This document shows, in pieces, positions 14,400 to 62,895 of a stretch of DNA of 64,000 nucleotides (positions within the stretch are counted from its first letter, which is position 1; every line of letters starts with the position of its first letter). A program made the position numbers and the translations under genes. The stretch comes from Chloranthus sessilifolius. Its lineage: Eukaryota; Streptophyta; Magnoliopsida; Chloranthales; Chloranthaceae. The notes below the pieces were generated by a model. It had not been told where the DNA came from. It searched no databases and worked only from the letters and a program-made list of their open reading frames with translations. The DNA lies in the NCBI GenBank assembly GCA_021018995.1, contig CM037587.1:62966104-63030103 (forward strand), read 5' to 3'.

Positions 14400-16836
14400 T
14401 GTAATGTCCCAACCTTTTGGGCCTTGATCTGTAAGACTCGGGGCGCGTGCCGATGGATCATGCACCGAGGACCCCTTTAACAATGATGTAATGTCTATAG
14501 ATCAAATCCAACGGACCGGATCGATCTTATGTAGACTGGATGTGGGAGCTTGAAACTCTCACACACGTCCCTTTGGTGTAGCTATTTTACACTCAAACGT
14601 AGGAGCTAGAGTATGAAAAGAAACCTAGGGAATTTAATTTCATATTAAATGCTGTACTTGAGAGTTAAGAAGAGAGGGAAACCCTAGGGAATTGAAGGCC
14701 CGTGATTGCTGAGATCGATCGGTTAGCGCGGAGAGAAGCAGCTGCTCGATCGAGGACCAGATTCAACTACATTGACTCAGTGAGAACCCTATCTCTTCTT
14801 GAAACAAGGAAGAGGATTCGTTTGAATCAAGGTAAGGAGTGTGAATACATGTTTTAGATCGTGTTGGGTGGAGTTAAATTAGTGTGTGTTCATATGAGAT
14901 TCATAAGAAAGTGAGATCGATTCAAAGTGAGAAGAAATCGGGGGTGAAAAACCCAGAAATGAGCGAAATCTGCTCATTTTGATCAATCGAATTATGATTC
15001 GATCGATCGAAATGACATTAAAAATGGAAAAAAAAATGAAGTCCTGAGAAATTCGTTCGATCGAACGAAAAGTTTTCGATCGATCGACAGCTATAGTTCG
15101 ATCGATCGAGGGGTATAGAAACATAACTATGGAAATTTTGTTGAGGGGATTCGACCGATCAAAATTAATTCGATTGATCAAATTATGTGTTTTTGATCGA
15201 CCGAATTGAGATTCGTTCAATCGAATTTTGTTAAGGGATATACCTTCTGAGAACTCGATCAATCGAATTTGGTTTAGATCGATCGATTTATTTTCATTCG
15301 ATCAGTGGGGAAAATTCGTCCGGTCGAATGAAAATATGTTTTATAGTTTCTGAGAGAGGTCGACCGATCGAAATTTATTTCGATCGATCGAAAATGGGTT
15401 TCGATCGATCGAAACAGGGACTCGATTGATTGAATTTCCCAGATTTCTGCGTTTGGTGAGTTTTGACTTTGAGATTTCAAGGGGACCTTTGGCAATGTGT
15501 TTTGTATCATTCTGATGAATGAAAATGATCATGTTTAGGTGAGCCTTGTGAGTAGGATGAACCTGACCTTTGTGAAGGCTTGAGGACGCACGGGTCGAAT
15601 CCGTGAGGTAGGGAAAGCTTGATATCATGTGCATTAATTTCGTTAATACGTGTGTTATGATATGATGCATTTTTCGCTTTGACTAGGTGATTTTCGCATA
15701 TGACTTCGAACTGATAAGGCATGTGATACATTTGATTTGACAATATGTGAAGCTTATGAAATCTTTGAGATCCTTTGTGACGTGTATGTGAGATCTCCAT
15801 ATTTCATTCTGGTTTTGACATAAATTATAATTATCACTTTACACGGTGATAAGCTATATGTATGCACTTCTGATTTAAGGTTATGTGAATACCCGACAGA
15901 CGCGGCGGTATAACCGTGACTGACGTAGCAGGATATCCGTGACCGGTACGGCGGCTAATCCGTACACCCCTTGTGATATGTGCTTTGTGTGATTTCTATC
16001 GTATAACGGTAAATACGTGTTCGGCCAAGTGTCCAACTCTACGGGACCTTGGATTTATGTGCAAATGACTCATGTGAGTGACGACGGTGGGTATTCCATC
16101 GGGGGCTTGAGGCTATAGTTCCTCATTCTAGTACCTTAAGTAAAGCATCTTTAAGTTTCTTCTTTCTTATGTCGGAATGGAAATGTGAGCATATTCATGA
16201 AACCATCAACATTGCATATGTGTGTTAAAGCTATGAGAATCACCACTTTGCATGTGTTCAGAACTACTTCGTTTTCATCATGCCATAATGTATGTGTTTG
16301 ATGATATGATAAGCATGCTATGAGATTTTCCCTATTGAGCTTGGATGAAGCTCATTCCTTTACAAATGTCATAGGTTCAGGTGAAGGTGTTGAGGCGGAG
16401 ATTTCGGAGAAGGAAGATCCGGACTACTTCCCCTACGAAGACCTTGAGGAGCCCCATCCCGAGGATTGTTTCCTTTGCGCTAGACCTGGGTAGGTCCGGC
16501 CCTGAGTCATGTATTAAATTTTGCTTTGTTTTGGATAAGGAGAGAGGGATGACTTCTAAATGGTATAATTGATTTGTTGGTTGAACCATGTTTCGGTAAG
16601 GAAAGGTCCTTACCGGTGGCTCTCAACGGTTCTTTTTCCATAGGCTTTCTTATGGAATTAGAACCGTCTTTTGGGTTTTTGGGCAGAATGATAATGTTCA
16701 TTATTTTGTTTATGCTACGAGTTTGAAATGGTTCTGCTTAGATTCCGCTGTGCATGTTGTGACGCGACATGATCCGTTCGGGGCTCGGCCTTAGCGACCC
16801 TAATTATGTGAGTTTGAGCGTAAAATCCGGTATCCA
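14400..16836 (+). repeat. D 5' LTR
   Basis: About 2.4 kb, from TGTAATGTCC to TATCCA just before the primer site. It contains the TCGA-motif array (14991-15440) and a GC-rich phrase block near 15890-15970 with repeated CCGTGAC-type words. The left border is set by the switch from F1 gag coding to non-coding DNA. The 5 bases before it, TGTTG, would be the target duplication, but the other side is not seen. Confidence 0.78.
14991..15440 (+). promoter_or_regulatory. Array of TTCGATCGATCGAA-type motifs in the D LTR
   Basis: About 16 exact or near copies of the palindrome TTCGATCGATCGAA or its variant TTCGACCGATCGAA. In the best run the sites start at 15359, 15379, 15400 and 15421, a spacing of 20-21 bp or two helical turns. 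A second array of the same motif lies upstream of ORF3 at 21909-22252. This looks like a phased binding-site array. The protein that binds is unknown. Confidence 0.82.
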
Positions 16837-16838
16837 AT

Positions 16839-16856
16839 TGGTATCAGAGCATGGTT
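16839..16856 (+). other. D primer-binding site, initiator Met tRNA
   Basis: TGGTATCAGAGC followed by ATGG, two bases after the LTR end. This is the usual complement of the plant initiator-Met tRNA 3' end used by Tekay elements. Confidence 0.88.
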
Positions 16857-16957
16857 TTAGAGACGTTCGACGGGTCTTAACCTTTCGAGATTGAGATTTT
16901 ATCAAATACGAGGAACCTTCTGTTAATGAGACTTTTGTTTCATTGTGACAGATCCTA

Positions 16958-18222
16958 ATGGAACATCGTGGAAGGGGTCGACTGAGAGGCAGTCGCCAAA
17001 GAAGTGAGAGGCGTACTGAAGATATCCCTTCAGGATCTGGGAGAGAATTGAGACTACCTCCAGAGGCCGAGGGAAGCCGTAGAGATGAACCTACAGACAA
17101 GTTGACCAGGGCCATGGAGACGATTGGTAATGCAATGGCCCAACAGACGACGTTGCTTGCTGCCAACAGCAACCAGCAGCATCAGCCACCACCACCACCT
17201 CCTCCTGCCCTCTTGCCATCCTCATTTATAGATTTCAGGAGATTGAGACCTCCTGTATTCCATGGGCAAACGGATATGCTTGAAGCAGAGAAATGGTTAA
17301 AACAGATGGAGAAGTTACTGGAGAGATTACAGAGCCCAGAGCATGAGAAAGTAGGATGGGCATCTTTTCAGTTGGAGGGTGACGCAGACGCATGGTGGAA
17401 GTCTGTGTTGCGAAAAAGAGAAGTGGAGGGTCCATACACTCAATGGACTTGGGCAGAATTTGTAGCAGCTTTCAACAAGGAGTATTTTCCCAAGCAAGTC
17501 CGCAACCAGTTGAAGGACTTTATGAACCTAGTCCAAGGGAACATGACCGTACGAGAGTACGGTAATGAGTTTGTGAGATTATCGAGATTTGCTCCCGAAT
17601 TAGTTGCTACAGAAGAAATGAAGGCTGGAAGGTTTGAAGAAAGCCTGAGACCGAATATCCAAGAAAGAGTATCCATCTTTGAGCTAGAAACATATGCCGA
17701 ACTCATGGGAAAGGCGATTGTCACGGAAAGGGACATAAACAAGAGGAGAGACTGGAAAAGTAAACCAAGTTCGGGAGGGGCAAGTGAATATGACTACTCG
17801 AGGAATAAAAAGCCGAGGTTGTCTACACCTGCTCCAATGTCAAGACCAGCCTATTCAAAATTTCAAAGGTCTAACACCTCTACCCCGACGAGACCGTTCA
17901 GAAGAGAGGCCCTACTCAGACTCAGACGTCTGGGGCATCAGTTACTCAAGGACCTTCTCGAGCTGCATCTTCCAGTCCACAATTAAAGTGTGCTCGTTGC
18001 GGTAAGCCGCATAAGACGTTCGACTGTAGAAGAGATACGGGCGGATGTTTTAAATGTGGGAAGGTTGGTCACATGATTCGAGAGTGCCCAGAGATGAAGA
18101 AAGAGGGCTCCGTTTCGGCCACTACAGCATCGAAGCCTGCACAGTCCACGAGACCAGTTGTGAAGGGACGTGCATTCGCTATAACCGCCGAAGACGCCCG
18201 CACGAGCAACGACGTGATCTAA
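16958..18222 (+). pseudogene. D gag region
   Basis: Capsid precursor of a Tekay element. An Arg-rich start (MEHRGRGRLRGSRQRSERR) and a Pro run precede the capsid core (FHGQTDMLEAEKWLKQMEKL ... DAWWKSVLRKREVEGPYTQW). Two zinc knuckles of the C-X2-C-X4-H-X4-C type lie near 17995-18105 (CARCGKPHKTFDC and CFKCGKVGHMIREC). The chosen start has a good context and follows the primer site by about 100 bp. Fossil, with the N-terminal two thirds well kept. Confidence 0.88.
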
Positions 18223-18369
18223 GGTATAATTTTTCTTTGGTGTTTAAGTTCACTTGTTTGTTTTCTAGATGAAGAAAGTGCATTAATAGAAAAGATTTAG
18301 GTTCATGTTGGTGTATGTGTGTGCATGACATGCATGTCTAAATGTTAGTTTGTGTCTTAAATCATATAG
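18223..18369 (+). other. D spacer between zinc knuckles and protease
   Basis: T-rich, non-coding stretch of roughly 150 bp with intron-like edges (GTATAA near its start, ATATAG at its end). I do not know of an intron at this place in Tekay elements, so this is only noted. Confidence 0.4.
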
Positions 18370-18790
18370 GTACACTACAACTCTATCATGAAAACGACGG
18401 CGATCGTTGTGTAGCACGAGTTCTGATAGACCCAGGGTCTACCCACTAGTATATAACCCCGGAGTTTGCAGAGAGGTTAAAGATTGTTCCCGAGGAGTTA
18501 GAGTTCACACTGGATGTTACAGTTCCTACAGGTAGCGCCGTGACTGCAGACATGTGTTGCCGATCAGTCATTGTGCAAGTGGAAGATCAGAAGACAGTCA
18601 CGGACCTCATTTTGTTGAATATGAGAGGACTCGATGTACTTCTTGGCATGAACTGGCTATCTGCATATTATGCAAGCATTGATTGCCTACGGAAGGTAGT
18701 TACTTTCTGTCCTCTGAGATAGAAGTCGTTTCGATTCGTTGGTGAGAAAGGAAAGGTAGCACCGATCATCTCAGCAGTACGAGCTGAACG
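18370..18790 (+). pseudogene. D protease region
   Basis: The retropepsin-type block RVLIDPGSTH is followed by the later block DLILLNMRGLDVLLGMNWLS, with the usual spacing for Ty3/gypsy proteases. Fossil. Confidence 0.82.
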
Positions 18791-19942
18791 GATGATGAGA
18801 AATGAATGCGATGGATATCTAGCATTCCTGCAGGAGAAAGAGGAGATGAAGAATGTTATCAACGATATTCGAATTGCCTGTGAGTTTGAGGACGTATTTC
18901 CTGACGAATTACCAGGATTACCACCTGATCGGGAGATCGACTTTGCTATCGACTTAGCTCCAGGTATCGAACCTGTATCCAAAGCTCCATATCGAATGGC
19001 ACCTGCCGAACTGAAAGAGTTGAAGGAGCAACTGCAAGAACTATTGGATAAGGGTTTTATAAGATCGAGTGTGTCTCCTTGGGGAGCATCGGTCCTGTTT
19101 GTTAAGAAGAAAGACGGGTTGATGAGACTTTGCATCGACTATCGTCAGTTAAACAAGCTCATGATCAAGAACAAGTATCCGTTACCTAGGATCAACGATC
19201 TATTCGACTAGTTGCAAGGAGCAAAATACTTTTCAAAGATCGACTTGAGATCCGGGTACCATCAATTAAGGGTGAAGACCGAAGATGTGCAGAAGACCAC
19301 ACTCAGAACTAGGTATGGGCATTACGAATTCTTAGTGATGCCTTTCGGCTTGACGAATGCTCCAGCTTCATTCATGGACCTCATGAATCGGGTCTTTAAA
19401 CGATACCTTGATACGTGTGTGGTGGTGTTTGTGGACGACATTCTCATTTATTCAAAGACCAGGGAGGAACACGAACATCACTTACGCATTGCATTGCAGA
19501 CCCTTCGAGAGCATCATCTGTATGCCAAACTCAGTAAGTGCGAGTTTTGGTTGGAACAAGTGAGCTTTCTTGGTCACGTAGTATCTGAAGCAGGCTTGAC
19601 CGTTGACTCAGCAAAGATTGAGGCAGTGCTAGATTGGGAGCAACCCAAGACCGTGACGGAGATTCACAGTTTTCTCGGTCTAGCAGCATACTACCGATGC
19701 TTTGTGGAAGGTTTCTCCAAGATTTCGGGACCACTTACCCGACTTACAAGAAAGAATACAAAATTTGAATGGACCAAAGAATGTGAAGAAAGCTTCCAAG
19801 AACTCAAAAAACGGCTTACTTCTGCTCCAGTGTTGACCATTCCATCAGGTAGTGGAGGTTTTTCTGTTTACAGTGATGCGTTATATGGTGGTCTGGGGTG
19901 TGTATTGAATCAGCACAGTAAAGTTGTCACCTACGGCTCATG
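18791..19942 (+). pseudogene. D reverse transcriptase region
   Basis: Well-preserved chromovirus RT blocks: [76 protein letters not shown], and the catalytic [13 protein letters not shown], followed by [14 protein letters not shown]. The start of RNase H ([20 protein letters not shown]) is joined on. Fossil. Confidence 0.93.
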
Positions 19943-20400
19943 ACAGTTGAAAGAGCATGAAATGAATTATCCGACTCACGATTTAGAGTTAGCCGCGGTG
20001 GTGTTTGCGCTCAAAATTTGGAGGCATTACTTGTACGGTGAAACCTTTGAGATCTTTACGGACCACAAAAGCCTCAAGTATTTGTTTACGTAGAAAGAGT
20101 TGAAAATGAGGCAATGACAGTGGATTGAGTTCCTCAAAGACTATGACTGCACAATTCAATATCACCCAGGTAAAGCCAACGTTGTGGCTGACGCACTGAG
20201 CTGGAAGCATACATCCCAAATAGCTAGTCTCATCACAGGACTTCACAGGTGGAAGTTATTAGAAGACCTTTCGCTGTATGATAAGGCTATTACAACCAAG
20301 GATACGAGAGTATTGTTGGCAAACCTTACGATCAGACCAGCTGTCTTTGATCGCATTTATGAACTTCAGATGAAAGATGAAGAACTTGTGAAACTCTGAC
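19943..20400 (+). pseudogene. D RNase H region and connection
   Basis: The RNase H words [33 protein letters not shown] and [13 protein letters not shown] appear in the usual order for Ty3/gypsy, followed by the variable connection to integrase. Fossil. Confidence 0.85.
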
Positions 20401-21765
20401 AAAAGGCAACTGAAAATGGGGACTTCACTATCAAGGAAGATGGGTCACTACTCTTTCGTGGACGATTATGTATACCGGTTGATGCCGAGCTGAGGCAAAC
20501 CATTCTGGACGAGGCTCATAAGTCCAAATACGCCATTCATCCGGGTGGTACTAAGATGTACTAGGATTTACGGAAATGCTATTGGTGGAGAGGACTGAAG
20601 AAAGACATTGGCGAATATGTATCAAAATGCCTGGTGTGTCAACAGGTAAAGGTGGACCATCGACACCCAGCAGGCCTCTTGCAACCTCTACCGATACTGG
20701 AATGGAAGTGGGAGTCCATTTCTATTGATTTCATTGTGGGATTGCCGAGGACATTGAGACGCTACAATGCCATATGGGTGATAGTGGATCGACTGACCAA
20801 GTCGCACACTTTTTGCCCTATAACATAGCATACACTGCAAGCAAGTTGGTAGAATTATACATGAAAGAAATTGTCCGACTGCACGGTATTCCTACGAGCA
20901 TTGTGTCCGATCGTGATCCATTGTATACGTCGATATTCTGGCAAAGATTTCAAGAAGGCATGGGCACGAGATTGGACTTTAGTTCTGCATTCCATCCTCA
21001 GACTGATGGTCAGACAGAGAGAGTCAATCAGATCATTGAGGACATGTTGCGAGCATGTATGATAGATTTTCAGGGATCATGGGATCAACATCTTCCTATG
21101 ATAGAGTTCGCGTATAATAGTAGCTTTCAGTAGAGCATTGGAATGGCTCCATATGAAGCCTTATATGGACGGAGATGTAGATCTCCGATCAACTGGGAGG
21201 AAACCGGTGATAAGTTTGTGTTGGGACGGGAAGCTATTAGGAAGAATGCCGAAACTGTGCGTATTATTAGAGAAAGAATCAGAACAGCACAGAGTCGTCA
21301 GAAGAGCTACGCAGACATTAAGCGTACAAGCATGGATTTCCAAGTGGGAGATCATGCGTTTATCAAGATATCCCCAATGAAGGGTGTGATGCCCTTTGGA
21401 AGGCGCAGAAAGTTAGATCCTCGCTACATCGGACCGTTCGAGGTATTGGGAGAGTTGGTGAAGTTGCATATAGGGTTGCATTACCCCCGCAGCTTGATCG
21501 AGTGCACGACGTATTTCATATTTCTATGTTGCGGAAGTACGTGCGCGATCCGACTCATATCCTCGATGCACCACCAGTGGAAGTCTACCGAGATTTGACG
21601 GTCATCGAAGAACCAATGCACATTTTAGACCAAACTGAGCAAGTATTGAGCACAAGACGAATTCCTCTGGTATTGGTCCAATGGAAGAACCACTCTAGAG
21701 AGGAAGCAACGTGGGAACGCGAGACCGAGATTCGTGCTCAGTATCCCTTGTTATTTACTGATTGA
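20401..21765 (+). pseudogene. D integrase with chromodomain-type tail
   Basis: The zinc-binding N-terminal part ends in CLVCQQVKVDHRHPAG. The catalytic core follows (ISIDFIVGLP, IVSDRDPLYTSIFWQRFQ, FHPQTDGQTERVNQIIEDML), then the C-terminal GPFEVL block. The end, about 21500-21765, reads VHDVFHISMLRKYV-like and then RIPLVLVQWKNHSREEATWE, which is the chromodomain-type tail of chromoviruses. This tail defines the lineage. Fossil. Confidence 0.9.
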
Positions 21766-21908
21766 GATATCAGAGGCGATTGTAGAAAGCAAATTATACC
21801 TCGGTATATGTAAACGCACCGAAGCATGAATATAAAACATGATTTTGAGGTTGATTGTGTCAAAATGTTAATGAGCAGGTGAAAATGCAAAGATCAAGTG
21901 TTTTCTGG

Positions 21909-22272
21909 AAATTCGACCGATCGAAGTATGAGTTCGACCGATCGAATTATACTGGCAGAGACAGACTAAATTTTTTTACCTAAGGCTAGGTGAATTCGAC
22001 CGGATGAAAATTCCTTTCGTTCGATCAAGCCTTCTTATAGCTTGAGAAATTCGACCGATTGAAATTTTTTTTCGATCGATCGAATTATGGATTTCGACCG
22101 ATTGAATTTAGATTCGTTCGATCGAAATTGTGAAAACCAGTAATTGATGAACGAATTTCGATCGATCGAAATGAATTCGATCGATCGAAATCGATTCAGT
22201 TCCTATTAAAGTTGATTTTCGACCGATCGAAACAAATTCGATCGATCGAATTTCTTCTATATATATAAAAAA
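21909..22272 (+). promoter_or_regulatory. Second motif array plus TATA box upstream of ORF3 in D
   Basis: Twelve copies of TTCGATCGATCGAA or TTCGACCGATCGAA in about 345 bp. Starts at 21912 and 21933 are 21 bp apart; 22050, 22071, 22093 and 22113 are 21, 22 and 20 apart; two further pairs are 19 apart. A TATA-type sequence, TATATATATAAAAAA, follows directly at 22258-22272, about 250 bp before the ORF3 start. Two telo-box words (AAACCCTA) lie in the leader near 22486 and 22507. This looks like an internal promoter with the same sites as the LTR. Confidence 0.75.
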
Positions 22273-22523
22273 TGGTGTTTTCTTTTCTTTTGTCCATTCA
22301 AATTTTTTGCAATTTTGGGGGGTTCTGTTTGGGTTTTTCGTGGGTTTCAGATTTGGGAGACTATCGGACATCAGATTGCGCCAAAATTGCTACGGGAATC
22401 GAACCCAATACTCTAAAAAATGGTAAGCATTTGTTTTGGGTTATAGATTTTCTATTTTTTTTTGCCTAAATTTTGAATCTCCCCTAAACCCTAGTTTTCT
22501 TTCCAAAACCCTAATTTTTCTTC

Positions 22524-23137
22524 ATGGCACCAAAGAGGAAGGTTGCCACATCCAAGATCCCAGCGTTGAAGCGACCCAAATCCGCTACGGGTCCTTCATA
22601 ACCATCCGTTCCCCCACCTCAACCACCCATTCGACCACCTGTTCCGCCACCCACATTGCCTGCCGAGCAACTCGATGCTCCGCAAGCACCTCAATGTAAT
22701 CTGCCCAACCAGTGGTGGGCGGACAAGGGCTTCGCATTCGAATATACCATCGACCCAGCCCTTTTTGAAACACCCGATGTGCCCGACATTGATGCTTGGG
22801 CACTCGACTATTTGGGTAAGGTAGGGCTTGATAACCTTTTGAAGCCCATTCATCCTTATTTCTATCCGCGCCTTGTACGCTTATTTTACCAAAATATGTT
22901 TGATGGGCCAAACCCCGATATCACAATATGTACCAAGGTCGATGGCAAGACCTATACTTTTACCCATACGATGGCCTGTGCGGCCTTAGAGTGTTTTGAC
23001 GCCTACGGCGAAGGGATCGATTTATTACCATCCAACCCCCTAATTTAACCCATACCTTTATAGCCCAACGGATGACGCAAGGACGTGTTGCAAAAGGGCG
23101 AGCCATTAAACGAGCTCCCTTGGGCAAATCAGGTGGT
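22524..23137 (+). pseudogene. ORF3-like gene downstream of D integrase (truncated)
   Basis: Starts MAPKRKVATSKIPALKRP in a good context (ATGGC), with a basic NLS-like motif, then a Pro-rich stretch. It then has a domain homologous to ORF3 of the Athila elements here: YLGKVGLDNLLKPIHPYFYP followed by RLVRLFYQNM. I believe this corresponds to the domain often annotated 'putative plant transposon protein'. Coding character ends abruptly at about 23137 where segment G begins. No signal peptide or membrane segment is seen. Fossil. Confidence 0.7.
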
Positions 23138-23642
23138 TGAAATTGAAAATAGACTAAATTTTTGGACCGTGAAATAGTGTTTTGGACTTTTTGGAGTTGA
23201 TTTCGGAATGATAATTATGAATTAAATTGTAAAGCTAGAATTATAAGACTGAAACTATATTTAGAATTTTTTAGAAATATTAAAATAAGAAACTAAAATT
23301 AAGACTAAATTTTAAAGACCGAATTCGGGTCTGAAATCAAGAAATCAGGCCGTATGATTAAGGACTGGTTCTGAATCGAAGGATTAGAACCAGAGATTAA
23401 CGATATGACTGTAAATCGAGATTTTAGAACTGAATTAAAGTCTAAGAGATCAGTATATCGCACTGATAGATTAAGAACTGGTTCTAAAAACAGAGAACTA
23501 GAACCAGATATATAGAATTTCGGTCCGAACGAGGTGCTACAGTCTAAAACTGAAAATAAAAATTAATAGAATTCCTAGATCTAGAGATTAGAAGCTATGG
23601 TTGTGAATTAAAAGATTAAATCCTTACCTAGGGTTGGGGGCT
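23138..23642 (-). repeat. G, left half: LTR/leader-like segment on the minus strand
   Basis: AT-rich non-coding DNA. Read on the minus strand it starts AACCCTAGGTAAGG and continues as a leader-like sequence. It is the continuation of 36306 onward, interrupted by element A, as shown by the GGGCT duplication. Identity is uncertain: a solo LTR or truncated LTR in minus orientation is most likely. Confidence 0.45.
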
Positions 23643-25714: not shown

Positions 25715-25725
25715 CACCCCCAAAC
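25715..25725 (-). other. A polypurine tract
   Basis: On the minus strand the sequence TTAGGTTTGGGGGTG runs directly into the 3' LTR, the expected place and composition for plus-strand priming. Element B has the same tract. Confidence 0.75.
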
Positions 25726-47279: not shown

Positions 47280-48079
47280 TTAGAATGCAAAACAGATCTG
47301 TCGAGAGGTTTGAATTGATGTTCGACAGGTTCTGAGGCCTCCCAATGTGCATTTTAACATGTATTATGACCTGTCGAGAGGTTTAGGTTGATTCTCGACA
47401 GGTACTAAAGCTATGCATGAGCAATTCGATAGGATATGTGTACTTATCGAAATATTGGGAGAACTAGTCGAGAGGTACTGAAGACTTTTGGGTTTTGATA
47501 GGTTCAGATTACCTATCGAGAGGTTCCATGAACCTCTCGAATTGATTTTGTTTGAAGCCTTGAACCTGTCGACAGGGTTGAATGAACCTCTCGAGACCTT
47601 CAACCTGATTCTAACTCTTTCACAGGTTGATGCAACCTATCGAAACCTTCTCTCCAATCCTGTCGAAATAAGATTTTGGTTGTTTTAAACCCATCAACAA
47701 CTTAATCCATTCACTCGACAGCTTCTGCTCTGAGCTCCATTCCTTGTCTGTCGATTTCCCAGTTCCCTCTTCTTCCTCCATCTCACTGGTTTCTACTCCA
47801 ATCACTCGGCCATTGTTCCAATTGCTTCAATTCCTCAAGGGCGACATTTTGCACCTGGTCTGTGCCAGTTTGGTGTCGTGTACATCAAGATCTAAAAAAC
47901 CCTAGGGTTTATATGGGTAAGTTCTTTTTTAGCTCCACTCTATGATTTCCAAGCTCTGTACTTCCATTTCTAATTTGTGTGGCTACTTTGATTGAGAGAA
48001 GAGGTTTGTGTGGCTACTTTGATTGAGCGAAGAGGTTTGTTGTGGTTGTTGAGGGTGATTGTTTGAATTTTTGTGACCA
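47280..48079 (+). promoter_or_regulatory. C internal array of CCTGTCGAGAGGTT-type motifs before ORF3
   Basis: About a dozen words between 47290 and 47690, such as CCTGTCGAGAGGTT and its reverse AACCTCTCGA. Sites at 47511 and 47532 are 21 bp apart. A telo-box AAACCCTA lies near 47897 in the presumed leader. A TATA box is less clear than in A, B and D. Confidence 0.72.
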
Positions 48080-52292: not shown

Positions 52293-52298
52293 AGTTTT

Positions 52299-52316
52299 TG
52301 GCGCCGCTGCCGGGGA
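52299..52316 (+). other. B primer-binding site
   Basis: TGGCGCCGCTGCCGGGGA, six bases after the LTR; the standard Athila-type site. Confidence 0.93.
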
Positions 52317-52587
52317 GGCAGTTTAGAAATTGATAGATCTAAGTTTTGATCATAGATCTGTAGTTTTTATTTGATTTTTACTAACTGCATTTGTAAGTTT
52401 TGTTGTTTTTCAGTAGTTTGTGTGCATTTCATCAGATCTAAGGCTACCAGTGAGAGGAGAATCATGCTGGAGACTTCTCTGTAGTTTTTATCCCTCTACT
52501 CCCCTGTTATTTTTCAGATCTGTTGATAATTTTATTAGAATAGTTAGAAAATTTGGTTGATTTTGCTTGTGGTGTTGAAAATATGTT

Positions 52588-54233
52588 ATGTATTCAGATT
52601 TTGAGTGGTGTATGTTTGGTAGGAGAACTCTGCAACCTCAGATTATTCCACTAAATCCAGAGGTTGAAAGACTTCTCAGATCCAGACCAACTACACCCAC
52701 ATCTATTGCATTTGATTCTTTAGAAATGGGTGAGGAACAACAGCCAAGAACCCTTAAGGAGTTTAATGCACCAGGGTCTATAATTCTCTCTTCTGCATTC
52801 AATTCCCAGCTGCTCAGTGAAACTATGAGATAAAATCATCCATCATTCAAATGCTGCCCTCATTTCATGGCCTGACCAAAGAAGACCCCTACAAGCACAT
52901 TGGTGAGTTCTTGGGACTGTGCACTACATTTAATATCATAGGTTTGGAGGAAGAGGCCACCATGATGAGACTCTTTCCTTTTTCATTAAAGGACAGAGCC
53001 AGGACTTGGTTTTCCTTGCTTCCACCCAAAATCATTTAGTCCTGGAGTGATCTCCAATGTCAATTTCTGGCCAAATTTTTCCCTATGTCAAAGACCAGCC
53101 AGTTGAGGAAGGGTATCATCTCTTTTACCCAAGATCCAACTGAAGATTTTCATTAATCTTGGGAGAGATTTAAAGAACTCCTCAAGAAATGCCCCCACCA
53201 TCAAATCCCTGAATGGCAATTGGTTCAAATCTTTTATCAAGAAATTGATGCTAAAAGCAAAGATATGATAGATGCTTCCTGTGGTGGCACCTATCTCCAT
53301 AAAACTGCTTGAGGCATGGGAGCTCTTTGATATTATTAGTGAGAACTCTATGCAAAGGGAAACCTTGGCAAGAGATCTAGAGCCTCCTAGAGTGATGAAG
53401 GAGAACACCTCAAGGGGAAAGGTATATGAAGTGAGTGTACCAAGTGAGTTGGAAAGGAAAGTGGACAGCTTAACCCTGAAATTTGATAGGCTAATGGGAG
53501 CAATTCAGTCACCTGTGGCTGCTAGAGTGGAAGTGGCATGTGCCATATGCCAGTCCCCTGCTCATCCCCTGGAAGAATGCCCATCTATTGACCAGTTTCC
53601 TGATTTTATAACGGAGCATGTGACTGCAGCTCAGTCTTATGGGCAGCAGCCTGCTGCTGGGTATCAATGGAGGAACCACCCCAATCTGAGGTGGCGACAA
53701 GATGCATACCCCAGCCAGCAGTAGCAGCCCCAGCAGCCCATGCCCTGCAGAAGTGCTCAACCCTATAGAGAAAATTATGTCCCAAGGCCTCAACATCAGC
53801 AACCCATGGCCCAACCTGTAGCTCCTCCTGTGCAGCAAGCTGCACCTCCTCCAACTGTGAGAACACCATCCTTTGAGGAACAAGTTCTATCCTCACTGCA
53901 GAGCTTAAACACCTTAACCCAAACTGTGCACTCTCACAATCAGAGTATCAAAAAGATAGAGGACCAACTTGGTCAGCTGTCTGATGCTCTGACTAGGAGA
54001 GAGGGAGGAAGGCTGCCCAGCCAACCACAGGACAACTCACGAAGGCAGTTTGTAGTGGGTGAAATGTTCTCCACCTATGAGGAAGCCAAATCTTTACAAC
54101 TTTGAGAAGTGGTAAGCTAGTGGACAACCAAGTGGGCTGTGAGCCTGTGAGGAACTTGGAGGAAGAAAATGAAGTGATTTCTACCAGCACACAACAAAGA
54201 CCACCAATGGTGGACTTGAAGGAATAATCAGCT
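52588..54233 (+). pseudogene. B gag region
   Basis: Athila-type gag: RTLKEFNAPG near the start, MLPSFHGLTKEDPYKHIGEF then LFPFSLKDRARTWFSLLPP as the capsid core. The zinc knuckle CAICQSPAHPLEEC lies near 53545, followed by a Gln/Pro-rich linker and a helical segment (SIKKIEDQLGQLSDALTRRE). Better preserved than in C. Fossil. Confidence 0.86.
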
Positions 54234-55208
54234 GTGAATAAAGAGGATAATGAGGATCCTCAAGAAAAGAAAAAAATAAAAAAGAAAGAGGCCCCATTGG
54301 CTAAGGCTGTAAGTGAGGGAGCAATCCCACATTTGCCATTTCCTAAGGCACTACAAGCACCCTCCCCTTTTGATAAAGGGCAAGGAAAAATTAAGGAAAT
54401 GATGGAGACTTTCAAGCAAGTAAAGATCAATTTACCTTTACTTGATGCCATTAAACAGGTCCCAGCCTATGCCAAGTTTTTAAAAGACCTGTGCACCCAT
54501 AAAAGACAGTCTAGGATACACCTATCCATGAAGGTCTTTTCAGCAGAAAAAGTTAAGCAAGTCCTGTCGATTGAAACTCCCCCCAAACTTCAAGATCCTG
54601 GCCTCCCCACTATCCCCTGTATCATTGGGGATCATACCATTGATAAAGCCTTATTAGATCTGGGAGCCAGTGTAAATTTGCTTCCATATTCAGTATATGA
54701 GAAGCTGGGCTTAGACAAATTAAAGCCCACACATGTGGTCCTCCAGCTGGCCGACAGATTTGAAAGGAAACCTGTGGGGATAATTGAGGATGTTTTGGTT
54801 GGAGTTGACAAATTCTTCTATCCTGCTGACTTTTTGTTATTGGACATGAAACCAAGCAAATGTGCTTCTTCCATACCTATGATTCTAGGTAGGCCCTTTT
54901 TGGCCACTGCCAATGCCCACATACAATGTAGGTATGGGATCATGGAAGTGTCATTTGGGAACATAAAGATTAAGCTGAATGTGTATAACACTGGCTATCA
55001 ACCCTCTCTTGAAGAGGCTTGCTTTTCCATTAATGCCCAAAAGAAAGTGATGCATGATAATCCACATTGGCTGGTGCAGGACAATGCTTGGTTCACAGAT
55101 AGAAAATTGCACCCAGGGAATGGACACTTCCTGAGGAAAAGATCTATGAAAAGTGCCAAGTTTGATGAGCCTGAGGGGACTATGGATCTTCCAGACCCTC
55201 CAGATTAA
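54234..55208 (+). pseudogene. B protease region, end of the gag-protease frame
   Basis: A long well-kept stretch: KALLDLGASVNLLPYSVYEK, LKPTHVVLQLADRFERKP, VLVGVDKFFYPADFLLLDM, SIPMILGRPFLATANAHIQC, and an acidic tail EGTMDLPDPPD. The tail is shared with A and is followed by non-coding DNA, so this end looks like a family trait. Part of a fossil element. Confidence 0.88.
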
Positions 55209-55499
55209 CCCCTGTGGTCAGTATGTATCATATGTACCATACTTTGCTTTTGTTTTAGGTGTTTACTTTATTGTTAATTGATTTTTTTTATTTCTTGCAA
55301 CATGAAAAGAAAAAAAAAATTAGGGAGAGAAACAAAACTGCCATGCTTAATACTAGGCCATCATTTCAGTATTACCAGTTATCCTGAGATAATGGGAGCT
55401 TCGCCACAGGGAAAACAAATTATAGAGCAGCACTGCAGACGAGCCTACTGAGTGCTAAAACTAAAAGTACCCCGAAATGCAGCCTTATTTGATTTTTAG

Positions 55500-55900
55500 A
55501 AGTCTTCAACAGGTCAAGTTCACCTTTCGATAGGTCACATGGTGATTTTGGCAGGATATTTGATGGTTTCGATAGGCACTGAACTTCTCGATAGGTGAAA
55601 TTAACTTTTCGATCAGTTAAAAAGAGCAAAACAGAGATTTCGATAGGTTCTCGATACCAATCAGGAACCTATCGAAATGAAGATTCAGCTGCCGTTTAAA
55701 CTGATCGAAAGGATAGTTTCACCTATCGGGATCCTATCGAATCTTCCCCTTTCAGAGTTTTGTCTGCCATGTTTTCGACAGGACGCATGAACTTATCGAA
55801 ACCATCCAATTCACCATATCAGAATTGTATTCCACCCCTTATATACCTGTCGAGAGGTCATTTGTACCACATTCCATACCTTCTGCAAAACCCTAGTTCT
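55500..55900 (+). promoter_or_regulatory. B internal promoter module: motif array, TATA box, telo-box
   Basis: About 14 CGATAGG/CCTATCGAA words at 55500-55860, TATA-type CTTATATACC at 55839-55848, and AAAACCCTAG near 55888. ORF3 begins about 280 bp further on. The layout repeats that of the LTR promoter (array, then TATA box). Confidence 0.75.
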
Positions 55901-56169
55901 TGTCCTCTCTCTTTCGCCTCCCTCTTTCTCCACTAATTCCTCACAGAACCTTCAGCTGTGCAGGCTGCCATTTTGTTAGTACATTTAGCTTACACAGAGG
56001 AGCATTTTACCCCTAATTTTGGAAAAATTGAAGCTGTGCAGTGTGATTTTTGTTAAACCCTAGGTATTCCGAGGACAGTTGCTTTTCCACCATCAATCTG
56101 TCGCTCCTCTAAACTTTAAACTTCAAACTCCACTTCAAGTTGGTGAGTGCTTAATTTCTGAAGAGTACA

Positions 56170-59020
56170 ATGGATGAGTCGGAGGAAACTCTCATGAACA
56201 TACGCCGGAGAACAATTGCTTCCACCCCCAAATCCTCTAAGAAGTCAAAGCCAGCTGACAAACCACCTGTCAAGAGGAAGCTCACTGAGATGTCACCCAA
56301 AAAGACTCCTAAAGACAAGAAAGCGAAAGTTGTTGAGATTCAGGAGCCTAGAATAGAAGAAACCTTAGCGAGAGCTGCCCCTCTAGTAGAGTTGCCAGCG
56401 GGGTTAACTACCCCCAATGAGTTTGTAGAAAAATTGAGTCTTGTCCCTGAGACGGATTTTGATCTGGCATATTTTGCCAACATTGGAGAGTGCCAGGGGA
56501 CATTGGAATATTTGAAAAAAGAAGGTCTGCTACCTCTGCTTTCACCCTTGAAGGAAAATGTCTACCCCAGGTTAGTGAAATTGTGGTACCAGAACCTGAA
56601 AAAGAAGGTGGTGCTGGGAGCTGAGGATACACTAGAAATCTTGATTGATGATTGGCAGCTGACTGTCGATTACAGAGATACTGGGATGGCTTTGGGAGTC
56701 CCATATCAATTTGACTCCCAAAGCTGAGGGAGCACCTACAGGGGCCACATTTCGGGAAATGGCTAAACAGCTTACTAATGGAATAGTGGGCTCTGGTGAA
56801 TCCTTGATGAGAAGAGACCTCCATCCTACACTCAGACTTATTGATACCATTCTGAGGAAAAATGTCTGTCTCTGGCCATTTGCAAGAGAGAAGGGCCCCA
56901 TTAGTGGATGCCCTATACTTCTGTTCAAAGGGGCAATTTGTGAATGCACCTAAGCTGATTTTTGAAACCATGATGGACATCAATGACAAGGTGCTAAAGA
57001 GGCAAGTTTTTGCTAAAGGAGGAGGCCTAACTTTCTGCAGACTCATCACATGTTTGATCAAGACTGGAAAGTATGTGATCAAGCGACATGAGCCTATGGA
57101 GAAACTGACCATCAAATTGTATGGAAAAAGGGAATGGTCAACTAGCCTCACCTTGATTAAGAAGAGTCAGCCAGTTGGAAGGGAGGAGGCTGAGAAGGCA
57201 CCCACTACTGTGGCAGCAGAGATTCCTGCAGAGATACCCTTATCCACCCCTCCACCTACCATACCTATCCCATTACCCACACCTACACCCACTTTGCTTT
57301 TTCCAGTTGTATCAGCACCCCCCCCACAGACCTCTCTCCACCCACTTTTGAACCCCTTTTACCTTCACCCACCTCCCCAGTGTTCCAATCGAACATCCTG
57401 GAACCTCCCACATTCTTCGAGCTTACCCCTACCATTTCTGCTCCCCCATCACAAACCCCTCTGCACCCTCAGGGTGTGGACTTGTTCACCACTACTGGGT
57501 TCACGGCCCTCATGACCTCCATTGTGGAGGATGTTGCTCATGAGTACACTCCACTTCCTGACTCCCCACGCCCCACTCCTCCTCGCACCCTCTTCTCCCT
57601 TCCATCATGTCCAAACACCTACCCCTTCTACCCCTACCATGCCTGACACCCTCACTCAAATTCTATCCCTCCTTCAAACCATTCAGTCCCAATTAACTAT
57701 CAATACCAACAACCAGACCCTCATGACCTCATGTCTCCAATCAATTCAGTCCACCCTTATCCCATCCTATCCCGCTACTCAATCCCCTCACATATCCCCT
57801 CCTACTTCCCCTATACTTACCCCACACCCTGTGGCTGCCCAGCTTGAGGAAGTGGCCGCACCAGCTCACCCCATATTTTCTTCCCCACAGGCCACTCTAC
57901 CCTCCTCCCCAGATTTACTGGCCTCAGCAGTAGCTGAATGCCCTCTACCTTTCACCACCCCCCACCTATTTTCTAGGATGCCTCTACCAAAATTAATCCC
58001 TGGGAGGATCTGGTTCTCTCCACCCCCTCCTCTTCATCCACTCCACCCCTGTCCTTACCCATTGTCCTTAGACAATTCATGTACACACCCCCTTACCTCA
58101 CCCTCTTGTATGCCATGAGGGATAACCCTTACATCCACAGGGATGTCCTGAGAGGTATGGCTGCACTCCGAGCTTCCACTGAGGCCCCTTATGAGGAGAG
58201 GATTGCCAACATCGAATTGGAACACAGAATTAAACTCCGCGATATCTCTCAAGGGTGGTCTGAAATCCTGACTCGTTATGACTCAGAAAAACAATTGGCA
58301 GCTGCTGAGAGTCTCATTGCCAAATATGAGAAGAAGAATTCTGAGCTTCTTAAGAAAAAATTAGCCAATGTTCAAGAGATACTCAAGGCCACCAAGGAAC
58401 TCTCTGATGCCAACCTACTCTATGCCACCAAATAAATTGATATCTTAGAGAAAAAGGTTGCTTCCCTTACCTCAGCCATTTCAGCCTACCCCTCTCGCCA
58501 CCGCACCTCCTTCCACTCCCACCTGCCCCCCTTCTACAACTCAACCCCCACCCTCTGTGGATGTAAACCCTCCCCCAGCCCAGGAGCCTCCCCCTACTCA
58601 ACCTGCCCCTCCAAAACCTAAAAGGGCTCCCCCCAAGAAGAAAGTTACTTCAAAGAGATCTGCTCCTTCGGCTGCTACTGTCAAGATTAGACAGCTGCCT
58701 GATGCCCGGTCTAAAGACGCTCCTCCCACTCAACCCCCAACCCAACCTGATGCCTCTTTCACCTTACTGTCAAGGGAGGAGAGAAGGAAGGTTGCTGCGG
58801 CTCTCGGATTGGACCCCATTGCCCTTTTTCCTTCTGATTTTGATTCAGATTTTGTTACTGCTGCTGATCCCAAAGGAAAACAACCTGCTGCCCAGTCTGA
58901 GGAGGCAACAAAGAAGCCGCAACCGAAGGCTAAATCTAAAGAGAAAGCTCCCTTATCTAAGGATGAGCTGAAAAACCTGGCTGACCTCTATGATTGGCCA
59001 AATGATGCCTATAAATAGCT
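56170..59020 (+). pseudogene. B ORF3 (nuclear-type accessory gene)
   Basis: About 2.85 kb. The basic start (KKSKPADKPPVKRKLTEMSP) is followed by the shared domain (FVEKLSLVPETDFDLAYFAN, EGLLPLLSPLKENVYP, RLVKLWYQNL, ILIDDWQLTVDYRD) and a LIDTILRKNV and LVDALYFCSKGQFVNAPKLI block. After a long Pro/Ser/Thr-rich stretch come a charged helical region (NPYIHRDVLRGMAALRAS; KKNSELLKKKLANVQEILKA) and a Lys/Pro-rich tail ending NLADLYDWPNDAYK. No signal peptide or membrane helix is seen. Homologous to A and C ORF3, more distantly to the gene after D. Fossil. Confidence 0.8.
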
Positions 59021-60783
59021 ATGGCAGTTTTGTTGTTTTAGTTTCTCCCTCACTTTTCTCATGTATATATGTAGCTTTTTAAATACAATTTTGTCTTCAT
59101 GTAGTTTTGTTATTTTTTCTTTCTGTATCACTCATTTCACCCTCATGCCTCTCTCCTACTTTCATAGTGTAAAATAGTGAGGACACTGTTTAGTTTAGGT
59201 TTGAGGGTATGGCATGTATGTATGCGAATAAATTGGTTACTTTTAGTACAACTAGGCTAAAATGAAGTGTTTGGAATTAATTACAGTAAATTTCCACTGG
59301 AATTTTTGTAAAAAGAGGAAATTAAGAAAACAACTATTTGAAACTGAAATAAGCCGTAGTTCAACAGACTTCATGAGGCAAATGTCAACAATTTGTGAAA
59401 AATAATTTTGAATGTGCAGTAAACCTGAAATGAGGAAATTGTGAAGACACACCCCTGAAAATTAGATGGAAGGCCATACCCAGTGAGATTTGGGCCTGAA
59501 AAAGTTTCCTTGAAGAGTGCCTTGGCAAATTTTCTGCTCTATGGATTGACTGGATCTAATTTTAACCACTAGAAGTTAGGCAATTCCAAGTTGAAACAGC
59601 TTGACAACATTCATGACATTGAGGACATGAAGTAAGGCCATTCCTTGGTCAGTTTGAGCTTAAAATGTCCCACCTTTGAATTGCCCTTGATGCACACCAC
59701 TTGAGCCTTAAAAGTCCCAATTTTCTTTAATGAAAACCAGAAATTTTAAACCCAAAACATTTTGACCTATTTCAGTTCACCCCCAATCTGAGAAATCAGG
59801 AAGAGGAAGGAGAAGCAAGGTTAGAGGAGCAAGGTGTTAAATCTGGTTGAAAGAAAAAAAAACACAGTTGGTGGTATTTGTGGTATTCCAACTTAAAAAA
59901 AAAAAAAAAAAAAAAAACAGAGTAAAAGAATGAGAGAGAGAAGTCATTTCATTGAAAGATTGAAAGAAAAGAGAAGAAGTTGGCCATTTTGGCTCTGAAA
60001 ATTCAAGAAATAAATGGAATTGTGCTGAAATGATGAAGGTGTTGTCTAGACCACCTCCTTACCTTTACTGATTTCTCAATTTGAATCCCTTTTACCCTGT
60101 CATTCTTTTACAAACCTCATCCCTAAGCTACACTACAACCCAATAAAAAGACCTTACTGATCTAGAATAGATTGAGCTGCCATGTGGAGATAAGGATCTG
60201 TCCAATCTATGGTGAAAAGAGTTAGAAAATTTCAGAGATTAGAGCAATGCCTATGCTCATGCTTACAACCCTATTTGAGGACTGTAACTGCTCTTGAGCT
60301 GTGTGAAATTCTATACCCTTCATTGTTGTTGTGAGCTAACAACCCTGGTGAGACTTGGGCCTGAAATCCAATTTGATGGGGGTAGTATCAAAACAGAATT
60401 CTCAAGTGAAAGGTGAGCCATGCATCAATCTTCAGACACAATGTCATGAACTGAGTGATGATGAAGGAATTACTACAAAATTTCATGATTTAAGTTGGTG
60501 ACTTTTCTGCTGAAAACCCTCTAGAAGTGAAAAGACATGGTGAGAATTTATTCTAGTTTACTGAAACTCTGTTTAGCAGGATGCATTATGATTAACTAAC
60601 ATTATTGGAGAAGTTTGTGGGTACCTTCACTGAAAACCCTCAGGAGACTTCACTCCTCCACTAGGGATCACCTAGGAGTTTAAAAGGCTTGGTGCATATA
60701 CTAAATGCATCCGTGCTCCCTATGAAAGTGGCATTTTAATTATGTTTTATCATTCTCCTTTGCTCAGGGACTAGCAAAGCTTA
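59021..60783 (+). other. B non-coding region between ORF3 and polypurine tract
   Basis: 1.76 kb without a supported frame, colinear with the same region of A. The conserved block AAATAGTGAGGACACTGTTT at 59172-59191 is followed by AGGTTTGAGGG. A poly-A run lies near 59896-59918. Confidence 0.7.
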
Positions 60784-60794
60784 GGTTTGGGGTG
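60784..60794 (+). other. B polypurine tract
   Basis: AGGTTTGGGGTG lies directly before the 3' LTR start (TGCTAAGTGG at 60795). It is the same sequence as in A. Confidence 0.75.
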
Positions 60795-62895
60795 TGCTAA
60801 GTGGTGAAAAATGCCACTTTTCACCCTCTAACCTGACCATTGATAGACTTGTGAGCACACTAATAAGCTTATGTCAAGAGCATTTTGTAGAGAGTAGTAA
60901 AAAAGGATATTAATGTAGAAAATCACTCAAGAATGCCCAAAAAGGGGTTATCTCTCAGCACAGGACAAACCCAGCAACAACACACCAGAGGGTAGCACAT
61001 CACTGGACCCTTGGAGCGCGTGGCTACAACAGGGCAAGGCGAAGGAAGTGAAAGCAAGCTGAAAACGTCCTATCGATTGGTCACCTGAAGATTTCGATAG
61101 GAGCTGAAAGCAAAGAAAGGAAGAATTCGTGCAGTTGAAGAGGTTTTCGATAGGATCTAAAGGCAGAAAAAGGATGAATTCGTGTGGACAGAGGAGTTCG
61201 ATAGGGTCTAAGAACCTATCGAGCAGCTGAAACGAAGGAAGAAATCATCCTATCGAAAACCTGCCTCAGCATCAAAGGAACCTATCGAATGGTTTCTTGA
61301 ACCTATCGAAGGGTGATTGAGCCTTTCGATAAGACTGAAAGCAAACCTATCGAAATGGTGGAATGCAGAGCGGAACGTATCGAAATGGTTCTCCAACCTG
61401 TCGAAGAGCCCTTCCAACCTGTCGAATACTCCAAGCCAAGGGCAGAGAATGCTGAAACTCTAAGAGAAGGCTCATCCTATCGAAACCTATCGAAGAGATC
61501 TGAGAACCTAGCGAAAGGACTAAAATGCTCTATTCCAACTTGTCAAAAGCTTCCCGAACCTGTCGAAATCGTGTGCAGAACTTCTCAGAAATTTAGCTGT
61601 GCACACATTGTGATTTAGTGGCCTACTGCACGCAACTCGAGGCACTTGGTGACTGACACGATGGTTCCAGAAGATGCCCTAGGAAGCCATAACCGACCCA
61701 CGTGCTCTAACAGAACTCTAACAAACTCTGACGACCTTCTAGAAGGGATTTTTGGCAGGAAAAATAGAGGAGAAAGCTATATATAAAGACCCCCAATTGC
61801 CATTGGGGAGGATCGAGATCTGAGCTAAATTCTGGACATTAGCACTTGCAGAGCAATTCCATTTTCCCTCCTTTAGCCTAACAATGGTTGGTTAATTTCC
61901 CTGGAGTAGCAAGGAGAGAGGTTAGATCTGTAATTGGGTAAGGTTAAGATTGCTATTATGGGTTCTCAGTTGCATAGACTACAGATCTGAGAGTGTTTTC
62001 CATTATAGAGTGACTTTAATTGCAATGTAAATGCTATTTTTAATGCTTTAATTAGATCTAAAGTTCCTTTAGTTTCATTTGGTGATCGATCGGATTTGTG
62101 TAGAGGAGTTGTAGATCAGCTCACCCACTTAACTGGTAGGCCTCTTGGATACCACCTGATCTCCCTGGATCTGATACTCTTGTGATTCCTTGAGTCAGTG
62201 ACCTAGGAATTGTAGCATCTGCAGTGGTTTTAATTGCTCTAATTGATGTTCTAGCTCTGGAGGAGATCCCTAGGATGGTCTGTGACCATTAAAGTGGACA
62301 GATCATAACCTTAAGATTAGCCCAAGCTTAGGCTCCAATAGGATTTGTCTACTGCAAATCCATAGATTCGATAAAGTCTATAGGATGGTTAGTGACCATT
62401 AAAGTGGACAGATCATAGCCTTAAGACCAGGTGGATCCTGTGATTTGGAGTAGAATTTATACCCTACAGCTGTGCTTATAGCCAGCGAGGGATTTGTGTG
62501 CTCTGAACCTCTGTAGCATGATTAATTGAATCTGATTTCAGTGAAGACCAATCTCTAAGCTACTCTTCTCCATTTTCTACTTTTTACTCTCTTCCCTTGC
62601 AAGATCTAAGTTCCTAAAATCGATCCAATTTTAGCGTAGTTTAAGTGACAATCCATTTTGAACCTCTCCCCTGCCTTTTAGCTAACTTAGCAATAGTTAG
62701 GGTGCCAGATCTAATACAGATCTGGAGATTTATCATATTTTTAAACTAACCTCCTTGTGGACATTCCCTTATTCACCATTTCTATAAAACTTACTACAAC
62801 AGACCCTGACTACTTGCAGGTTTGTGTCAGTGTGTCTGCCTGGTTTTATTGATGATTTTAGACCCTCATTTGAGGGGAGGCAAACACAGCCAACA
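60795..62895 (+). repeat. B 3' LTR
   Basis: Array at 61065-61575, TATA-type box near 61779, hairpin blocks at 62275-62306 and about 62385-62416. Ends ACAGCCAACA, followed by the target duplication CCCAC. Confidence 0.93.
61065..61575 (+). promoter_or_regulatory. Phased TCGA-motif array in the B 3' LTR
   Basis: Copy of the 50440-50960 array with few differences in the motif words themselves, upstream of the TATA-type box near 61779. Confidence 0.82.

What the first reader, a model, noticed from the sequence alone, without database searches (positions are those of the whole stretch)
14991..61575. Helically phased TCGA-core motif arrays occur twice per element, with element-specific spelling
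Seen: elements A, B, C and D each carry an array of a short palindromic or near-palindromic motif in the LTR and a second array just upstream of ORF3. The spelling differs by family (TTCGATCGATCGAA in D; CCTATCGAA in A and B; CCTGTCGAGAGGTT in C) but is the same in both arrays of one element. Sites are often 19-22 bp apart: 15359/15379/15400/15421 and 22050/22071/22093/22113 in D, 50659/50680/50701 and 50754/50775/50796 in B, 39921/39942 and 47511/47532 in C. Known: VANC proteins of Arabidopsis VANDAL elements act against silencing through short motif arrays in their own element. Inference: an element-encoded or host factor reads these sites and has co-evolved with them, linking LTR and ORF3 promoters.
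Basis: partly seen in the sequence, partly recalled or inferred. Interest (0 to 1): 0.9.

Follow-up and report, generated by a model that had tools for sequence, protein, structure and literature searches.

The report
Helix-phased site arrays in retrotransposons
Several families of jumping genes in this plant genome carry clusters of short mirror-like DNA words near the start of their end repeats and again in front of an extra gene, mostly set whole turns of the double helix apart, which looks like a landing strip for a protein that switches the element on.

Summary
Every 400-bp bin with 8 or more TCGA lies in an LTR or just upstream of ORF3. LTR and internal arrays of one element share 8-mers at 69-112 per kb against 0.3-0.5 in the rest of the window, with unrelated spacers in B and D. 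In Athila and Tekay the gaps are whole helical turns: 67 gaps, period 10.5 bp, 91% within 2 bp of a multiple, odd multiples included. Of four further TCGA clusters met in fetched stretches, three are phased (32 of 33 gaps), one is not (5 of 10). TTCGATCGATCGAA occurs 14,269 times genome-wide, its reversed control 10 times. A random Athila has another dyad, CCTCGCGAGG, before ORF3; my noted prediction of the same dyad in its LTRs was met in the 5' LTR, weakly in the 3', without 10.5-bp phase. Best reading: binding arrays for a dimeric factor serving the LTR promoter and an internal ORF3 promoter. An ORF3-less chromovirus shares the Tekay spelling in its LTRs, so ORF3 as reader is unproven. Closest precedent: Sirevirus repeated motifs (Bousios 2010). 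Hypomethylation is unsupported.

The parts
14400..23642 (+). Element D, Tekay-type chromovirus with ORF3, cut off here by the insertion of A; LTR start at 14400 is inferred, the 3' LTR was not found
   Evidence: gag, RT, SH3_Tf2-1 hits; iMet-type PBS after about 16870 (PBS type recalled); chromodomain-like end (recalled); no D LTR match in the next 10 kb
14746..15430 (.). D LTR array, TTCGATCGATCGAA and variants
21910..22250 (.). D internal array upstream of ORF3, same spelling
22258..22269 (+). TATATATATAAA, 7 bp after the last D internal site: candidate internal promoter
22524..23045 (+). D ORF3, broken by a stop after the N-terminal MAPKRKV stretch; carries the domain shared with Athila ORF3
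   Evidence: Transposase_32 hit below its cut-off (17.5 against 45 bits)
23643..36300 (-). Element A, Athila, TSD AGCCC; no RT or RNase H match
24988..25420 (.). A 3' LTR array
30691..30960 (.). A internal array upstream of ORF3, abutting a TATATA box
35590..36030 (.). A 5' LTR array
38936..50172 (+). Element C, Athila with RT and RNase H, TSD CGTCG; interrupted by B, its 3' LTR ends at L024:3894
39300..39970 (.). C 5' LTR array, CCTSTCGASAGG-type dyads
47295..47755 (.). C internal array upstream of ORF3; no TATA box found between it and ORF3
50173..62895 (+). Element B, Athila, TSD CCCAC; protease present, no RT or RNase H match
50445..50930 (.). B 5' LTR array, AACCTATCGATAGGTT-type dyads
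55520..55860 (.). B internal array upstream of ORF3
55840..55845 (+). TATATA box touching the last B internal site: candidate internal promoter
56170..59015 (+). B ORF3 region, broken by stops and frame changes; basic N-terminus, shared domain
61070..61570 (.). B 3' LTR array

Best explanation
The arrays are clusters of binding sites for a dimeric, sequence-specific nuclear protein, placed upstream of two Pol II promoters of the element: the LTR promoter, and an internal promoter that drives ORF3. In most families seen, neighbouring dyads lie whole helical turns apart, so bound dimers would face the same side and could bind cooperatively. The same protein would switch on the LTR transcript and ORF3 together. 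Shown: the arrays, shared spelling within an element, unrelated spacers (B, D), 10.5-bp phasing in Athila and Tekay, TATA boxes at the internal arrays of A, B and D. Inferred: that a protein binds, that it is a dimer, that it activates, that the internal promoter is used.
For: Shared 8-mers within an element with no spacer similarity in B and D. Period 10.5 bp, bootstrap 10.40-10.70, 0 of 5000 jittered sets as good, also without the 19-23 bp gaps; this is the pitch of B-form DNA (recalled), as expected of sites read on DNA. Among 16 self-complementary tetramers in the window only TCGA is strongly phased. TATA boxes touch or closely follow the last internal site in A, B and D, and ATATATA follows the array of the random Athila L027. 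LTR arrays lie a few hundred bp into the LTR and, in A, B and the ORF3-less chromovirus, a TATA box follows. The dyad before ORF3 of L027 also clusters in its 5' LTR, as predicted beforehand. 14,269 against 10 and 193 against 0 genome-wide.
Against: No binding, transcript or methylation data. The CGCG Athila is not phased at 10.5. The ORF3-less chromovirus is out of phase apart from its 21-bp gaps. With bare TCGA positions D is not phased, only with the dyad model. A alone is weakly phased (30 of 5000 at 10.5, 511 of 5000 over the period scan). C has no TATA box before ORF3, and no TATA box was found in the D LTR. One of two ORF3 relatives in the random sample has no clear array. A review states that env-like genes are driven from the 5' LTR (passage), and splice acceptors have been predicted for Athila (passage).
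Confidence: 0.66

Rival explanations
1. One reading: each ORF3-bearing family encodes an activator or anti-silencing factor whose binding word has drifted together with its arrays.
For: Related Athila families in one nucleus use different words (CCTATCGATAGG-type in A and B, CCTSTCGASAGG-type in C, CCTCGCGAGG in L027), which a single host factor would not explain. The ORF3 domain is shared by Athila and D (hhalign probability 95.5) and ORF3 N-termini are basic. Internal arrays stand before ORF3.
Against: An ORF3-less chromovirus carries the D word in its LTRs. No DNA-binding fold could be shown: the model of a B ORF3 piece is poor (pLDDT 42). Pfam gives no DNA-binding family above its cut-off in the pieces scanned.
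Confidence: 0.33
2. The reader is a host transcription factor family; elements have gathered its sites as enhancers, and ORF3-bearing elements need a second set for the second promoter.
For: D and an ORF3-less chromovirus with RT about 42% identical share one word. LTR arrays exist without ORF3. Internal arrays go with the second gene, as in Sireviruses, where ENV-less elements lack linker copies (section read).
Against: Spelling differs among related Athila families in the same genome, so several host paralogues would be needed. I could name no plant factor for these words.
Confidence: 0.33
3. The palindromes act in RNA (hairpins, packaging or siRNA production) rather than as DNA sites.
For: U3 and the internal array both lie in the genomic RNA of an LTR element; palindromic LTR arrays have been linked with small RNAs elsewhere (recalled, for maize Sireviruses).
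Against: The period of 10.40-10.70 bp matches B-form DNA and has no obvious reason in single-stranded RNA; internal arrays end at TATA boxes in A, B and D.
Confidence: 0.1
4. Neutral 21-bp minisatellites, or copies of the LTR array pasted before ORF3.
For: 21 bp is the commonest gap; 30 of 67 gaps are two turns. One 75-bp stretch of the two D arrays is 81% alike. Masked C spacers score better than 298 of 300 shuffles.
Against: Flanks of neighbouring sites are nearly unrelated (identity 0.26-0.37) and odd multiples of 10.5 are common, 24 of the 37 gaps outside 19-23 bp. Masked B and D spacers are no more alike than shuffles.
Confidence: 0.05

Closest known systems
Sirevirus repeated motifs (RM), Bousios et al. 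2010, PMC2829016 (passages and section 9 read)
   Same: Palindromic family-specific words, many copies in the upper half of the LTR starting 200-400 bp in, further copies upstream of the ENV gene, TATA box after the LTR cluster; ENV-less elements have LTR copies only, as the ORF3-less chromovirus here.
   Different: Sireviruses are Ty1/copia; the paper calls the RM Sirevirus-specific with a CGG-CCG core (except Tnd-1, ACAATCGATTGT). Here Ty3/gypsy lineages, TCGA or CGCG cores. In the passages seen the spacing of RMs is not analysed (the word 'spacing' occurs only in a reference title, 'helical' only in another).
VANC / VANDAL anti-silencing, PMC5735166 (passages read)
   Same: Short family-specific words in dense arrays in non-coding parts of a transposon, differing between related families.
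   Different: VANDALs are DNA transposons; the VANC21 word is not a palindrome, is arrayed in one orientation and grows by tandem repeats; here dyads with unrelated spacers. Demethylation not testable here.
Foamy virus Tas with LTR promoter and internal promoter (abstract of PMC4929722)
   Same: Proposed logic: one factor acts on the LTR and on an internal promoter upstream of the accessory gene.
   Different: No factor or internal transcript has been shown here; unrelated elements.
Additional ORFs of Athila and Tekay: PMC11728184 (passages), PMC12844716 (passages and discussion part 1), review PMC7264820 (passages)
   Same: Athila extra ORF with partial Transposase_32 similarity; aORF proteins reported with nuclear localization signals; the 2026 paper suggests that LTR elements may shape their own methylation.
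   Different: In the passages read, no motif arrays are described in Athila or Tekay; the review puts env-like transcription under the 5' LTR promoter.

Membership tests
Sirevirus repeated motif (RM) | Carried by a Ty1/copia Sirevirus | tested here: not met
   A, B, C have Athila-type PBS (recalled type) and D has gypsy gag, RT and SH3_Tf2-1 hits
Sirevirus repeated motif (RM) | Palindromic word in many copies in the upper half of the LTR | tested here: met
   Arrays about 280-1030 bp into LTRs of 2.1-2.5 kb (D LTR start inferred)
Sirevirus repeated motif (RM) | Extra copies upstream of the ENV-like gene, absent where that gene is absent | tested here: met
   Internal arrays before ORF3 in A-D; the ORF3-less chromovirus has arrays in its LTRs, 6 of 10 loci examined showing the LTR pair
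Sirevirus repeated motif (RM) | CGG-CCG core | tested here: not met
   Cores are TCGA or CGCG
VANC-type anti-silencing system | Element encodes a VANC protein | tested here: not met
   No DUF1985 or other VANC-like Pfam hit in the ORF3 pieces scanned; pieces are broken, so this is weak
VANC-type anti-silencing system | Target words in tandem repeats of one orientation | tested here: not met
   Spacers unrelated; half-sites in both orientations
VANC-type anti-silencing system | Loss of methylation around the arrays | tested here: inconclusive
   CpG decay proxy: 18 of 51 against 27 of 55, P 0.17; no methylation data
Dual-promoter transactivator (Tas-like) | Internal promoter before the accessory gene with the same sites as the LTR | tested here: inconclusive
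   Same words and a TATA box in A, B, D; C without TATA box; no transcript data
Dual-promoter transactivator (Tas-like) | The accessory protein binds both promoters | not testable with these tools
   Needs EMSA or DAP-seq

The most novel reading that the evidence does not exclude
The ORF3 protein family shared by Athila and Tekay is a sequence-specific self-activator. It binds helically phased dyads in the LTR and at its own promoter, its binding word changes from family to family, and shorter elements without ORF3 carry the word so as to be driven in trans. That would give the puzzling 'env-like' gene of plant retrotransposons a regulatory role and make it the LTR-element counterpart of VANC and Tas.
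Probability: 0.28. Interest if true: 0.92.

Novelty: new variant of a known kind. Interest (0 to 1): 0.74.

Why it matters
A similar layout was described for Sireviruses in 2010 and called specific to them. Here it appears in Ty3/gypsy lineages, with other cores and a helical spacing rule. The rule makes such arrays easy to find in any plant genome. It also makes an old question directly testable: what is the env-like ORF3 for, and does it bind its own array? If so, it would tie retrotransposon self-activation to the known anti-silencing systems.

Tried and rejected
A 21-bp minisatellite origin was rejected; a recent copy of the LTR array into the interior found no support in B or D. A coding reading of the 21-bp period was set aside because many gaps are not multiples of three. 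Structure prediction of a B ORF3 piece failed (mean pLDDT 42.4), so no fold search was run. A protein search with the B ORF3 piece found nothing at E 0.001; two viral-contig scans found no relative. CpG decay as a stand-in for methylation was inconclusive; CpGs inside arrays but outside TCGA (0 of 2 decayed in A, 2 of 9 in B, 2 of 9 in C) were left out of the pooled count. Over the whole random sample TCGA gaps are not phased (P 133 of 1000) while TTAA gaps are (0 of 1000), which I did not pursue. A genome-wide gap spectrum and a list of ORF3 loci could not be had. Dropped before counts: gaps over 110 bp; over 160 bp (one 179-bp gap of L024, also left out); A arrays from the pooled tests, reported apart. 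One search left out the L028 cluster, which one search shows unphased.
Full report
WHAT IS THERE. The window lies in a 2.17-Gb genome of 32 contigs, a plant judging by its elements. It holds nested LTR elements: a Tekay-type chromovirus D with an ORF3, interrupted by the Athila A on the minus strand; and the Athila C, interrupted by the Athila B. A and B are about 86% alike and have no RT or RNase H match; integrase loss was not tested, since the D integrase query does not even find C's. C has RT and RNase H. The names Athila and Tekay rest on PBS, chromodomain and ORF3 type, partly recalled.

THE ARRAYS. All 400-bp bins with 8 or more TCGA lie at nine of ten array places; the tenth, A internal, has 6. 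Shuffles reached at most 6 in 100 runs; one stretch of D pol reaches 7. Commonest 8-mers include TCGATCGA in D, CCTATCGA in A and B, and CCTGTCGA with CCTCTCGA in C. Those with three or more copies in an LTR array recur in the internal array of the same element at 69-112 per kb, against 0.3-0.5 per kb in the rest of the window. D against the Athilas gives 0-10 per kb; A or B against C 11-53; A against B 62-80, no lower than within A or B. So spelling differs sharply between D and the Athilas, by degree between C and A/B, and not between A and B.

HELICAL PHASE. Dyads were found with a 16-bp (Athila) or 14-bp (D) model. In six arrays not redundant by descent (B, C, D; LTR and internal), 67 gaps up to 110 bp fit a period of 10.5 bp with score 0.678; a control that jitters gaps by up to 5 bp reached this in 0 of 5000 runs, and in 0 of 5000 for the 37 gaps outside 19-23 bp. 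The result holds from 2 to 5 mismatches; bootstrap range 10.40-10.70 at 4 mismatches; 91% of gaps within 2 bp of a multiple of 10.5 (43% if uniform), against 60% for multiples of 21 (24% if uniform). Of 16 self-complementary tetramers in the window TCGA scores 0.33 (0 of 1000 jittered sets as good); AATT is weaker (0.10, 9 of 1000) and ACGT has only 12 gaps (42 of 1000). With bare TCGA positions, B and C arrays stay phased, D does not, and TCGA outside arrays is not. A alone is weak. Flanks of neighbouring sites are nearly unrelated (0.26-0.37). With sites masked, LTR and internal arrays are no more alike than shuffles in B and D (189 and 57 of 300 as good, forward) but somewhat in C (2 of 300).

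BEYOND THE WINDOW. TTCGATCGATCGAA occurs 14,269 times against 10 for its reversed control; AACCTATCGATAGGTT 193 against 0, four of them exactly 21 bp apart at C1:103470128-103470206. I fetched 19 stretches at the first listed places of the D word. DNA matches to D are at most 130 bp; 9 of 19 have a D RT match and 0 of 19 an ORF3 match at E 1e-4. Of 10 examined for repeats, 6 show LTR pairs with arrays around an RT: a chromovirus of about 7 kb with LTRs of about 1 kb. In three copies, the 723-761 bp from the integrase match to the 3' LTR are largely one open frame continuing the integrase in L020 and pieces of it in L009 and L014, with a chromodomain-like stretch in L014 (recalled); a TATA box follows the array at 419-487. 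Its gaps are often exactly 21 (83 of 173); without 19-23 bp they are out of phase (71 gaps, score -0.226).

OTHER ARRAYS. Ten kb past the window (L024) lie the C 3' LTR and another Athila LTR; six 9.9-kb stretches were drawn at round-number coordinates and two more beside one of them. In these nine stretches five TCGA clusters reach 8 per 400 bp. The C 3' LTR is phased (17 of 17 gaps). Of the other four, L024 4693-5348, L026 6845-7106 and L032 5909-6463 are phased (32 of 33 gaps within 2 bp) and L028 1168-1756 is not (5 of 10). I had seen the gaps before testing them; the elements of L026 and L032 were not identified.

A DIFFERENT WORD. L027 holds an Athila with only 4 TCGA in 9.9 kb; before its ORF3 stands an array of AGCCTCGCGAGGCT and variants, then ATATATA and an AAACCCTAG box. 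I noted the prediction that its LTRs carry the same dyad, then fetched them. In the 5' LTR side 9 of 10 CGCG of 6 kb lie within 500 bp; in the 3' stretch 3 of 4 do. Sites at 9/10 or better: 5 in each LTR (letter shuffles 0.9 and 0.6), not all within the array zone; 11 before ORF3 (0.2); 1 in gag-pol (1.1). At 8/10: 19 (6.8), 13 (6.3), 17 (3.4) and 14 (11.1). Gaps of 11 and 38-40 bp recur in LTR and internal arrays, but there is no 10.5-bp phase. L029, the other ORF3 relative in the sample, shows no clear array.

PROMOTERS AND ORF3. The last internal site touches a TATATA box in A and B and lies 7 bp before TATATATATAAA in D; C has none. An AAACCCTA box precedes ORF3 in all four. In the LTRs a TATA box follows the array by about 230 bp in A and B and 450 bp in C; none was found in the D LTR. 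ORF3 pieces have basic N-termini (MAPKRKV in D, PPVKRKL and KKTPKDKKAK in B) and share a domain between Athila and D (hhalign probability 95.5, E 1.4e-8, 66 columns). Pfam gives only a sub-threshold Transposase_32 hit, for D.

METHYLATION FOOTPRINT. If arrays were hypomethylated, their CpGs should decay less between the LTRs of one copy. B fits (2 of 15 against 12 of 22), A does not (7 of 14 against 10 of 24), C little (9 of 22 against 5 of 9); pooled 18 of 51 against 27 of 55, P 0.17. Between A and B, motif columns are more alike than array spacers (0.886 against 0.817; 0.891 against 0.803), but about as alike as the rest of the LTR (0.892, 0.901), and motif columns were chosen by matching.

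VERDICT. The layout resembles the Sirevirus repeated motifs, in another superfamily, with other cores and a helical rule. Ten searches of the paper library, judged by listings and the passages I opened, showed no report of such arrays in Athila or Tekay; the library lacks most subscription journals. Binding by a dimeric factor is the best reading; whether ORF3 or the host supplies it is open.

Noticed in passing
window 37045-38193 (+): A protease-like stretch (by eye) followed by a G-patch domain (PF01585, E 8.7e-05), between A and C; an older retroelement piece.
   Followed up: no
window 8325-9155 (-), ORFs to 13462: A third gypsy-type RT (30-36% to those of C and D) with no TCGA cluster nearby.
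   Followed up: partly
window 48462-48658 (+): A 93-bp direct repeat (99%) duplicates 31 residues inside C ORF3, in the shared domain.
   Followed up: no
window 23643-36300 and 50173-62895: A and B have lost RT and RNase H matches but keep LTR arrays, internal array and ORF3 remnants, as in non-autonomous elements.
   Followed up: partly
L028 2885-3560: Up to 32 TTAA per 400 bp with repeated 10-bp palindromes AATTCGAATT and AATTTAAATT; may explain the phased TTAA gaps of the random sample.
   Followed up: no
L027 4800-5320 and L031 2300-2400: CGCG-type dyads recur at 11 and 38-40 bp in both LTR and internal arrays rather than at whole turns.
   Followed up: partly
L029 2519-3220: An ORF3 relative (43% to D, 47% to Athila pieces) with no clear array upstream; loose ATCGT/ACGAT words by eye.
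   Followed up: partly
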